A stretch of DNA of 13,279 nucleotides, from the NCBI GenBank assembly GCA_002784365.1, contig PFKY01000059.1, forward strand, positions 1 to 13,279. The letters are read 5' to 3'. How positions within the stretch are numbered: position 1 is the stretch's first letter; every line of letters starts with the position of its first letter. This document shows positions 12,040 through 13,173 of the stretch, piece by piece. The DNA comes from Candidatus Wolfebacteria bacterium CG_4_10_14_0_8_um_filter_39_64. Lineage in GTDB: Bacteria; Patescibacteriota; Minisyncoccia; UBA6257; UBA9933. Both the position numbers and the translations under genes were made by a program. The notes under the pieces are model-generated. The model was not told the origin of the DNA. It did no database searches and saw only the letters and a list, made by a program, of their open reading frames with translations.

Positions 12040-12076
12040 GCGTGACTTTTAGAGGATTAATTAAAAGAAAAATTTT

Positions 12077-12120
12077 ATAACATTTATTCACGATCGTGAG
12101 TATTTGTTATATTTTATTTT
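12077..12120 (+). terminator. Terminator behind murG
   Basis: ATAACA (12077-12082) pairs with TGTTAT (12105-12110) around a perfect TCACGATCGTGA core, followed by ATTTTATTTT. The stem has internal mismatches and the tail is T-rich rather than a pure T-run. Position at the end of the wall-gene cluster supports it. Confidence 0.65.
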
Positions 12121-12134
12121 GCGACAGGTTGGGG

Positions 12135-12163
12135 TTGACAAATTAATAAAACTATGCTATCTT
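12135..12163 (+). promoter_or_regulatory. Strong promoter of the two-gene cassette
   Basis: Consensus TTGACA (12135-12140), an ideal 17-base spacer and TATCTT (12158-12163) preceded by TGC, so the extended -10 element is present too. Transcription would begin near 12170. It is the best-looking promoter in the window, and it leaves a leader of about 90 bases before the first small gene. Confidence 0.8.
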
Positions 12164-12181
12164 TTTAGCAACATTTCAAGG

Positions 12182-12235
12182 TGAGATGTCTGGTCAAAAA
12201 AAGAGCAGGCATCTCAAATGAGGTGTTTGCTCTTT
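12182..12235 (+). promoter_or_regulatory. Leader with two mutually exclusive hairpins (attenuator or riboswitch-like)
   Basis: Hairpin 1 pairs TGAGATGTCTG (12182-12192) with CAGGCATCTCA (12206-12216). Hairpin 2 pairs AAAGAGCAGGCATCTC (12200-12215) with GAGGTGTTTGCTCTTT (12220-12235), 16 pairs including G-U, on an AAAT loop. Both need the same bases 12206-12215, so only one can form. The competing strands TGAGATGTCTGGTC and TGAGGTGTTTGCTC look like diverged copies of each other. The tail after hairpin 2 (TTTAAATT) is a poor T-run, so it may act on translation, RNA stability or protein binding rather than termination. No known riboswitch class is recognised. Confidence 0.55.
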
Positions 12236-12261
12236 AAATTAAAAAGAAGGGGGGGTGAAAA

Positions 12262-12453
12262 ATGCAAAAATTTTGTTACAGGGATAAGCAGCGTCCATGT
12301 GATGAAAGTTGTGAGGCTTTTCATTCGAGTGTACTTTATGGACTTGATTCTCGTCAAAAGGTCTTGAGCGGAGAATGTATTGAACTCGGTATTCAATCTA
12401 TGATTGTTAGCGAATTACGCTCCATAAAAGACGCGATAAAAAAAAGGAGGTGA
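12262..12453 (+). CDS. Small four-cysteine protein, function unknown
   Basis: A 63-residue protein with cysteines at 5, 13, 17 and 39 (C-x7-C-x3-C-x21-C), in CYRDKQRPCDESCEAF and GEC, then a helix-forming, basic C-terminus ending KDAIKKRR. The spacing could bind zinc or an Fe-S cluster; similar short CxnC-x3-C proteins are known from phages and small-genome bacteria, but I cannot name a family. A strong purine-rich site, AAGAAGGGGGGGTGA, precedes the ATG, unlike nearly all other genes in the window. It has its own promoter and leader. Its stop TGA is part of the Shine-Dalgarno site of the next gene, so the two are translated as a pair. Coding status is supported by the two ribosome sites and the clean layout; function is open. 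Confidence 0.75.
   Translation: MQKFCYRDKQRPCDESCEAFHSSVLYGLDSRQKVLSGECIELGIQSMIVSELRSIKDAIKKRR
12443..12453 (+). promoter_or_regulatory. Full-consensus Shine-Dalgarno site of the second small gene
   Basis: AAAGGAGGTGA matches the complement of the 16S rRNA tail over eleven bases, six bases before ATG 12460, and it overlaps the stop of the first small gene. The core genes in this window lack such sites, so this is a marked contrast. Confidence 0.85.
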
Positions 12454-12459
12454 AGAAAA

Positions 12460-12657
12460 ATGGGAGAAGGAATAAAAATTATAGTTATAGTTGTTGATAC
12501 TGATGGCGCAATAAAGAAAGGTGTTACCTACATTCTTCCACGCGTATCAGATAATGGGTTTTGGTTCACTCCTGATGAGTCTGACCCCGACAAGAAGGGG
12601 GGCCGGAGATTTATTCCCCTCTATGCTATTAAAGAATTAATAGTGGTGGAGGGGTAG
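12460..12657 (+). CDS. Small beta-rich protein, function unknown
   Basis: A 65-residue acidic protein. IKIIVIVVDTDG (5-16), VTYILPRVSDNGFWFTP (22-38) and FIPLYAIKELIVVE (51-64) look like beta strands separated by turns, suggesting a small barrel (SH3-like) fold. The loop between them (ESDPDKKGGRR) is highly charged. No signal peptide, membrane segment or cysteine. I do not recognise the family. It begins six bases after the first small gene and has a perfect Shine-Dalgarno site, so it is probably made in high amount and together with the four-cysteine protein. A large terminator follows. It may be a partner or target-binding component, but nothing in the sequence proves that. Confidence 0.75.
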   Translation: MGEGIKIIVIVVDTDGAIKKGVTYILPRVSDNGFWFTPDESDPDKKGGRRFIPLYAIKELIVVEG

Positions 12658-12665
12658 ACAAGTTT

Positions 12666-12739
12666 AAGCCCGTTCAAGGATAAATCCCACGACATAAAAA
12701 TTTATGTGTGGGATAAACCTTGCGGGCTTCTTTTATTTT
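12666..12739 (+). terminator. Large intrinsic terminator closing the two-gene cassette
   Basis: Successive arms pair in order: AAGCCCG with CGGGCTT, CAAGG with CCTTG, ATCCCAC with GTGGGAT and ACATAA with TTATGT, separated by small internal loops. The tail is CTTTTATTTT. It is about 64 bases of near-continuous stem, longer than a usual terminator, so the 3' end could also serve as a stability element or a released small RNA. Confidence 0.85.
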
Positions 12740-12834
12740 CAATTTTTTAACTGGCTTCCATTTTAACCGGTCCCAAAATGTTTCCATTTTCAGACAAAAT
12801 TCCCAACCTTAATTTCAAAATCTTAAAATACTTC

Positions 12835-12994
12835 ACACTTCAGTTAACTGAAGTGTGGTCTAATGATAGACATGATAGATCAGTCAACCATTGGACGATC
12901 GGAATTTAGTTGACTAAATTAGCTTTATAAATCTCATTGGTCTTACATGATAGATTGGTCTAACGCGATAGACTGGTCTAATACATTAGACCAG
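12835..12994. repeat. Cluster of GTCTA/TAGAC hairpins
   Basis: A perfect 22-bp palindrome (half-site ACACTTCAGTT) at 12835-12856 is followed by GTCTA-ATGA-TAGAC (12858-12871), AATTTAGT-TG-ACTAAATT (12903-12920), GTCTA-ACGCGA-TAGAC (12958-12973) and CTGGTCTAAT-AC-ATTAGACCAG (12973-12994). GATAGATTGGTCTAA and GATAGACTGGTCTAA (12949-12963, 12967-12981) are direct repeats 18 bases apart. The GGTCTA/TAGACC half-sites resemble TetR-type operators in form. Confidence 0.75.
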
Positions 12995-13070
12995 CCAATA
13001 AAAAACTTTTCTAAATCAAGAAACAAGAAACAGGTTCAACATCTAAAAGAAGAGTTTGAGATTTTTATAA

Positions 13071-13110
13071 CCGCTCTAATTGGTTAGAGCGCTCTAATGT
13101 GTTAGAGCGG
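13071..13110. repeat. Double hairpin with CGCTCTAA/TTAGAGCG arms
   Basis: CGCTCTAA-TTGG-TTAGAGCG and CGCTCTAA-TGTG-TTAGAGCG overlap by two bases (CG), and the whole 40 bases can also fold as one cruciform. The TCTAA...TTAGA core is shared with the 12973-12994 hairpin, while the outer bases change on both arms together (GGT/ACC to CGC/GCG). Confidence 0.8.
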
Positions 13111-13173
13111 TAAGTAGTTAGAGAAGATTTAAGGGAGGATAAGGCCAGGATATATGTAAAAATCTTAAAAATA

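What the first reader, a model, noticed from the sequence alone, without database searches (positions are those of the whole stretch)
12135..12739. Self-contained two-small-gene cassette with its own promoter, leader, perfect ribosome sites and terminator
Between murG and gltX lies a complete transcription unit whose signals are far stronger than those of the core genes. It has TTGACA-17-TATCTT with an extended -10, two textbook Shine-Dalgarno sites, two unknown proteins (63 residues with four Cys; 65 residues, beta-rich) joined by an overlapping stop and ribosome site, and a very long terminator. Core genes here mostly lack Shine-Dalgarno sites. This suggests high expression, a foreign or phage origin, or a regulated stress or symbiosis function. 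Both proteins are unassigned.
Basis: partly seen in the sequence, partly recalled or inferred. Interest (0 to 1): 0.75.

Follow-up and report, generated by a model that had tools for sequence, protein, structure and literature searches.

The report
Orphan gene pair behind switch-like leader
Between two core genes of a tiny, poorly known bacterium sits an inserted unit that makes two small proteins without known relatives, while its promoter and folded RNA leader recur in related genomes in front of quite different genes, suggesting a reusable expression frame for accessory genes.

Summary
Window 12135-12745 is a complete transcription unit: promoter, strongly folded leader, two small ORFs with very strong Shine-Dalgarno (SD) sites, and a long terminator. 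The core genes beside it have almost no SD. The unit is an insertion: gltX directly follows murG in 12 of 27 relatives' murG loci, against about 1.2 kb here. Both proteins matched only themselves in 5.8 billion sequences.

The non-coding frame does have relatives. Its leader was found in three other genomes of the order (G045, a Jorgensenbacteria; G025; G137) before unrelated proteins. Promoter and upstream DNA recur in G129, the terminator stem in G137 and G129.

The four leaders have four self-complementary segments with two alternative folds, 2 kcal/mol apart in the window. In three of four, one fold makes the SD less open, partly through a pyrimidine tract (GYTCTTTAAA) that also fits the BoxA site of NusB/S10 (10 of 11 here). 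I propose a portable accessory-gene cassette with a translational switch. Insertion and frame reuse are well supported; the switch is inferred and weaker; trigger and protein functions are unknown. Phage origin is not supported. With four sequences the leader helix tested shows no covariation beyond chance.

The parts
12076..12111 (.). 36-bp imperfect palindrome TATAACA..CGATCG..TGTTATA, 23 bp upstream of the promoter; one of a dispersed family
   Evidence: a similar palindrome lies 24 bp upstream of the G129 cassette promoter
12135..12163 (+). promoter TTGACA-17-TATCTT, TG before -10
   Evidence: 27 of 29 bases of 12131-12159 shared with G061, similar in G129, G137, G078
12164..12261 (+). 5' leader with two alternative folds
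12170..12178 (+). leader segment 0 AACATTTCA
12182..12191 (+). leader segment 1 TGAGATGTCT
12207..12216 (+). leader segment 2 AGGCATCTCA
12219..12227 (+). leader segment 3 TGAGGTGTT
12229..12239 (+). pyrimidine tract GCTCTTTAAAT, BoxA-like (10 of 11 to GYTCTTTAANA) and partly complementary to the SD region
12249..12256 (+). Shine-Dalgarno of ORF1
   Evidence: -13.5 kcal/mol
12262..12453 (+). ORF1, 63 aa, four Cys, predicted C-terminal helix (low confidence)
12446..12453 (+). Shine-Dalgarno of ORF2 overlapping the ORF1 stop
   Evidence: -14.3 kcal/mol
12460..12657 (+). ORF2, 65 aa, predicted mostly beta (low confidence)
12666..12745 (+). intrinsic terminator, hairpin 12666-12729; outer stem GCCCGTTCAAGG/CCTTGCGGGC shared with G137 and G129, with an extra hairpin CCCACGACATAA..TTATGTGTGGG in its loop

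Best explanation
The unit is an accessory-gene cassette that was inserted at an ancestral murG-gltX junction of a Patescibacteria-type genome. (1) Shown by comparison: the insertion, and the reuse of its non-coding frame (promoter, leader, terminator outer stem) with other cargo elsewhere in the order. (2) Inferred: the leader is a cis-acting translational switch. It has four segments. In fold B (0 with 3, 1 with 2) the tract GCUCUUUAAA is outside the main stems and pairs in and just before the SD, lowering translation. In fold A (0 with 1, 2 with 3) the tract is buried in the extended 2:3 stem and the SD is free. (3) Guessed: what tips the balance. Candidates are NusB/S10 on the tract, temperature, or co-transcriptional folding speed. 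ORF1 and ORF2 would be translated together through the stop-SD overlap. The cargo looks like lineage-specific small proteins (a Cys-rich one and a small beta protein), possibly an interacting pair; their activity is not known.
For: Insertion: 12 of 27 relatives' murG loci have gltX directly next (11 at 30-119 nt from the murG stop to the gltX motif RxRxAPSPTG, one overlapping murG as read); the window has 1187 nt; 3 others have 632-1304 nt at the same junction. Frame reuse: covariance model R1 finds the leader in G000, G045 and G025 at E 1.3e-6 or better among 244 genomes, and a weak match in G137 (E 0.013) has the same layout; R1 was built from window plus G045, so only G025 and G137 are independent finds. 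Cargo differs: in an all-against-all of 14 proteins (two of them, G078 and G007, not full members; G075 left out) no pair was better than E 0.14; both window proteins match only themselves, and so does the G045 cargo. Terminator outer stem: a strict script pattern found it only in window and G137 loci among those then held; in G129 it was read by eye. Two folds, A and B: window -29.9, -31.9; G025 -18.7, -23.6; G137 -19.4, -22.3; G045 -29.2, -19.9 kcal/mol. Mean unpaired probability of the SD in A and B: window 0.96, 0.62; G025 0.53, 0.22; G137 0.26, 0.11. Leaders fold better than shuffles: z -5.5 (window), -5.8 (G045), -3.1 (G025), -4.0 (G137). Segments 1:2 pair in 38 of 40 positions against 11 of 36, 19 of 32 and 6 of 28 when slid.
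Against: With four sequences the 2:3 helix shows no covariation above shuffles: 377 of 500 shuffles reach the observed value. In G045 fold A is preferred by 9 kcal/mol and the SD is equally covered in both folds (0.23 and 0.23), through the 5' end in fold A. In the window the SD stays 0.62 unpaired even in fold B, and the minimum-energy fold pairs the tract with AAAGA just before the SD rather than with its G run. In G137 the tract pairs with the SD region in both folds. Segment 0 pairs poorly in G025 as aligned (4 of 8 and 3 of 8). G129's short leader is not better folded than shuffles (z -1.05). The full leader was found in only 4 of 244 genomes. ORF1 has no codon-usage support. No transcript, trigger or protein relatives are known.
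Confidence: 0.45

Rival explanations
1. A plain strong expression unit: the 5' hairpins only protect the mRNA from decay and there is no switch.
For: Very strong SDs and a good promoter; the short leaders of G129, G137-2, G163, G238 and G047 have one or no hairpin yet keep promoter and SD; the switch effect on the SD is partial in the window and absent in G045.
Against: Four complementary segments and near equal alternative folds in the window, with the 1:2 pairing kept in four leaders.
Confidence: 0.3
2. The tract is a true BoxA: NusB/S10 bind it, as on E. coli suhB and the Citrobacter koseri ParE-like gene, and repress or retime the mRNA.
For: Consensus GYTCTTTAANA from PMC5725501 (passages read). 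Match 11 of 11 in G045, G025, G129, G238; 10 of 11 in window, G137-1, G163, G047, G075; 9 of 11 in G137-2 and G000:C1; 7 of 11 in G078 (12 leaders). Leaders found without using the tract: G129 p 0.004, G047 p 0.0055, G163 p 0.008, G137-2 p 0.14, G078 p 0.97. NusB is encoded in 29 of 31 genomes, own genome included.
Against: Of 12 16S loci handed out, 10 show the leader, and only 2 of these hold a TGYTCTTT-type site; G129, whose cassette matches 11 of 11, lacks it in its own 16S leader. The local BoxA may therefore differ. Among 62 SD genes in 78 other loci only 3 have a match of 10 or more, 0.70 expected, and one of the 3 was fetched for its leader.
Confidence: 0.25
3. The palindromes ACATCTCA-N-TGAGATGT just after the start point are DNA operators of a repressor.
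For: Near-perfect palindromes at the expected place in G137 and G129, as read.
Against: Window, G045 and G025 keep pairing through G-T (G-U) matches and unlike half-sites, which suits RNA rather than a DNA site.
Confidence: 0.12
4. A toxin-antitoxin or similar two-protein system whose families are too divergent to recognise.
For: Two small, closely coupled ORFs; BoxA control of a ParE-like toxin gene is known (PMC5725501).
Against: No match in Pfam, PHROGs or NCBIfam; only a weak PADLOC match for ORF1 to a type I specificity subunit, E 0.017; other cassettes carry one gene or unrelated genes such as NUDIX.
Confidence: 0.1
5. One or both ORFs are not genes and the unit makes a non-coding RNA.
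For: ORF1 codon score equals shuffled DNA; no homologues found.
Against: Two SDs of about -14 kcal/mol placed before ATGs, stop-SD overlap, ORF2 codon z 2.65.
Confidence: 0.06

Closest known systems
BoxA-controlled mRNAs outside rRNA (E. coli suhB, C. koseri ParE-like gene; PMC5725501, passages read)
   Same: GYTCTTTAANA-like site shortly before the SD of a protein gene; NusB present in the genome
   Different: Here it sits after alternative hairpins, in front of unrelated orphan genes, and may simply be an anti-SD; no binding shown; mostly absent from relatives' 16S leaders
Translational RNA switches / attenuator-type leaders (general knowledge)
   Same: Mutually exclusive pairings of consecutive segments and an SD that is more open in one of them
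   Different: No Rfam family reaches its gathering score in the unit and the matches at E up to 10 look like chance; no ligand or trigger known
Integron gene cassettes (general knowledge)
   Same: Conserved surroundings with changing small ORFs of unknown function
   Different: Each unit has its own promoter and terminator and stands alone; integrase and attC were not searched for
Hfq/Sm-like small beta barrels (for ORF2)
   Same: Predicted mostly-beta 65-residue protein; Foldseek lists Hfq chains with probability up to 0.72
   Different: Model pLDDT 62, no match at E 0.001 or better; a lead only

Membership tests
BoxA (NusB/S10) regulated 5' UTR | Perfect match to GYTCTTTAANA within 50 bp of the start codon (the paper's own criterion, gamma-proteobacteria) | tested here: not met
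   10 of 11 at 12229-12239, last base differs; start codon 12262. Perfect in G045, G025, G129, G238
BoxA (NusB/S10) regulated 5' UTR | NusB encoded in the genome | tested here: met
   G000:C20:1152-1538, E 1.9e-34
BoxA (NusB/S10) regulated 5' UTR | Same site in the rRNA leader of the lineage | tested here: inconclusive
   own 16S gave no match in the assembly; 2 of 10 readable relatives' leaders, G129 not among them
BoxA (NusB/S10) regulated 5' UTR | NusB/S10 bind and change expression | not testable with these tools
   needs an experiment
RNA switch leader | Two mutually exclusive folds of similar energy | tested here: met
   window -29.9 against -31.9 kcal/mol; gaps of 5, 3 and 9 kcal/mol in G025, G137 and G045
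RNA switch leader | The folds differ in SD exposure | tested here: inconclusive
   0.96 against 0.62 in the window, same direction in G025 and G137, no difference in G045
RNA switch leader | Covariation supporting the helices | tested here: not met
   helix 2:3, no excess over shuffles with four sequences; one double change per helix by hand alignment
RNA switch leader | Membership of a described regulatory RNA family | tested here: not met
   no Rfam match at gathering score in the unit
Integron cassette | attC site and a tyrosine recombinase IntI | not tested
   upstream palindrome noted, its role unknown; no integrase search made
Phage accessory gene | Relatives in phage protein families or viral contigs | tested here: not met
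Toxin-antitoxin pair | Recognisable toxin or antitoxin family | tested here: not met

The most novel reading that the evidence does not exclude
A frame-and-cargo system in Patescibacteria: a portable promoter, two-state leader and terminator into which unrelated orphan genes are exchanged, moved by an unknown mechanism (perhaps using the dispersed CGATCG-centred palindromes), so that new genes arrive already under a common translational control.
Probability: 0.12. Interest if true: 0.82.

Novelty: new variant of a known kind. Interest (0 to 1): 0.5.

Why it matters
Patescibacteria genomes are small yet hold many unassigned small genes (general knowledge), and how these are controlled or acquired is little known. 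A leader that is better conserved than the proteins behind it gives a handle to find such genes, group them as one regulon, and test whether they share a trigger. It would also be an unusual case in which the expression frame, not the gene, is the unit that persists.

Tried and rejected
Protein searches: no relatives of either ORF except themselves. Weak hits in 200 order genomes (G035 E 0.003 inside a 674-aa open frame, G178 E 0.006 with an inner TGA) and in 101 relatives (best other hit E 0.007) are not convincing. rRNA-like leader: rejected as a general statement because 8 of 10 readable 16S leaders of relatives lack the tract. Rfam with E up to 10 gave only chance-like matches. Model R2 matched 170 of 244 genomes at E 1, and what I examined suggests that most of this is chance: of 90 loci looked at (30 handed out, 60 fetched, one of these not an R2 match), a promoter-tract-SD-ORF filter kept 9 rows, 8 distinct places, one of them (L121) doubtful. 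That filter also dropped the true G045, G025 and G129 rows, so it is not complete; the remaining listed and unlisted R2 matches were not examined. The 19-letter leader pattern in the genome collection gave 10 matches, of which, by reading about 100 bases on each side, only the Jorgensenbacteria one (L111, identical to G045) has promoter, hairpin and SD. Promoter-only matches G061 (no cargo ORF recognised) and G078 (leader without the tract) were not counted as full members. General enrichment of the tract before SD genes: weak. Structure predictions of both proteins were of low confidence (pLDDT 63 and 62) and support no function. Literature: among the 10-15 papers listed by each of five searches (23 to 356 papers held the terms) I saw none on such leaders or cassettes in Patescibacteria. 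Passages only were read of PMC5725501, PMC11665869 and PMC6851277; the library lacks most subscription journals.

Full report
What is there. Window 12135-12745 holds a promoter (12135-12163), a folded leader (12164-12261; 12169-12264 z -7.4; 12164-12264 z -5.5), ORF1 (12262-12453, 63 aa) and ORF2 (12460-12657, 65 aa), and a terminator (12666-12745; z -6.1). The SDs of both ORFs bind CACCUCCU at -13.5 and -14.3 kcal/mol. The 11 core gene starts of the window give +1.3 to -2.9. The promoter alone is not unusual for this AT-rich window (47 sites found, 28.6 expected).

Where it sits. The genome is 373 kb in 68 contigs, 85% complete. A relative in the same order (G045) is identical at its cassette to a contig labelled Candidatus Jorgensenbacteria, so the window belongs with the Patescibacteria (that placement of Jorgensenbacteria is recalled). 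In 27 relatives' murG loci, gltX follows directly in 12: 11 lie 30-119 nt from the murG stop to the conserved gltX motif, and one overlaps murG as read. In 3 it follows after 632-1304 nt, in 11 it is not in the held flank, and in 1 the flank is too short. The window has 1187 nt. The simplest reading is an insertion at this junction. In G047 a different gene (isochorismatase domain) with a similar promoter follows murG.

The proteins have no known relatives. ORF1 and ORF2 match only themselves among 5.8 billion proteins. The ORF1 entry stands for 61 contigs, so the locus is unlikely to be an assembly accident. There is nothing in Pfam, PHROGs or NCBIfam, one weak PADLOC match for ORF1 (E 0.017), nothing useful among PDB sequences, and no relative in the viral contigs. 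Single-sequence models are poor: ORF1 pLDDT 63 with a C-terminal helix, ORF2 pLDDT 62, mostly beta. Foldseek of ORF2 gives no match at E 0.001 or better, with Hfq chains among the top rows.

The non-coding frame has relatives. A DNA search of 101 genomes found the upstream palindrome plus promoter in G129 and the leader in G045. There the next ORFs are 153 and 150 aa and unlike ORF1 and ORF2. Model R1, built from window and G045, found G025 at E 1.3e-6 among 244 genomes of the order, before a 144-aa membrane-type ORF, and a weak match in G137 (E 0.013). G137 proved to have two such units on one contig: one with a 77-aa ORF and a second with a 30-aa ORF followed by a NUDIX gene. The outer terminator stem GCCCGGTTCAAGG/CCTTGCCGGGC is shared by window, G137 and G129; a strict script pattern found it in no other locus then held. 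Among 14 proteins compared no pair was better than E 0.14, and the G045 cargo also matches only itself. Of nine cargo-type proteins from other loci, three have a Pfam domain (NUDIX, isochorismatase, response regulator) and six have none. Shorter members with promoter, a tract of 9 to 11 of 11 and an SD, but one or no hairpin, are G129, G137-2, G163, G238, G075, G047 and C1 of the own genome. Broad model R2 gave mostly chance matches as far as examined.

How the leader could work. In window, G045, G025 and G137 four segments follow one another. Segments 1 and 2 pair in 38 of 40 positions, against 11 of 36, 19 of 32 and 6 of 28 when slid. Segments 2 and 3 pair in 33 of 40, 0 and 1 in 27 of 32, 0 and 3 in 23 of 32 (hand alignment). 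Thus fold A (0:1, 2:3) and fold B (0:3, 1:2) exclude each other. Their energies are -29.9 and -31.9 (window), -29.2 and -19.9 (G045), -18.7 and -23.6 (G025), -19.4 and -22.3 (G137) kcal/mol. The mean unpaired probability of the SD in A and B is 0.96 and 0.62 (window), 0.53 and 0.22 (G025), 0.26 and 0.11 (G137), 0.23 and 0.23 (G045). In fold A of window, G045 and G025 the tract lies in the extended 2:3 stem; in fold B of window, G025 and G137 it pairs in or just before the SD. In the window this cover is partial, in G137 the tract meets the SD region in both folds, and in G045 the 5' end covers the SD in fold A. The set is too small for covariation: none above shuffles for helix 2:3.

BoxA. The same tract fits the BoxA consensus GYTCTTTAANA given in PMC5725501 (passages read), where BoxA before the SD represses suhB and a ParE-like gene. 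Matches are 9 to 11 of 11 in 11 of 12 leaders, but several of these leaders were found through the tract. NusB is present in 29 of 31 genomes. Against it, 16S leaders of relatives show such a site in 2 of 10 readable cases, and G129 is not one of the two; SD genes in general are hardly enriched (3 of 62, 0.70 expected). An anti-SD role and a BoxA role do not exclude each other.

Verdict. The unit is an inserted accessory cassette whose expression frame is shared in the order while its proteins are, so far, unique. Phage origin has no support. A two-state translational leader is my best mechanism; a simple stabilising leader and BoxA control are the main rivals.

Noticed in passing
window 12076-12111; L005 553 and 1419; L023 1509; L025 1511; L029 1510; L085 1588: Dispersed 36-38 bp palindromes with conserved ends TATARCA/TGYTATA and centre CGATCG but varying arms, in five genomes of the family (G000, G129, G137, G064, G198), one of them between divergent frames; some are followed by TTTTATTTTGCGAYAGG. 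Function unknown.
   Followed up: partly
window 12834-13111: Cluster of palindromes (CACACTTCAGTTAACTGAAGTGTG, GGTCTAATACATTAGACC, GCTCTAATTGGTTAGAGC, GCTCTAATGTGTTAGAGC) between the cassette and gltX; elsewhere in the own genome only short partial matches.
   Followed up: partly
window 12685-12713; L030, L031, L034, L035, L036: Hairpin CCCACACATAA..TTATGTGTGGG, here inside the terminator loop, recurs in five relatives (G176, G198, G121, G023, G091).
   Followed up: partly
L216, L218, L221: The murG-gltX junction is 632-1304 nt long in three relatives of different families (G176, G009, G005), so it may be a permissive site.
   Followed up: partly
L182 (G000:C1:5587-6165): A response-regulator receiver gene of the own genome with a TTGACA promoter, a tract-like GCTATTTTAAA and a strong SD.
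   Followed up: partly
L064 (G007:C48): A 90-aa Cys-rich protein behind a hairpin and a GGAGGG site; reminiscent in kind of ORF1, but no sequence match.
   Followed up: no
16S loci of relatives, e.g. G006:C1:40473-43462, G194:C13:1676-4670: Several 16S matches span 1.7-3.0 kb, which suggests insertions in the rRNA gene.
   Followed up: no
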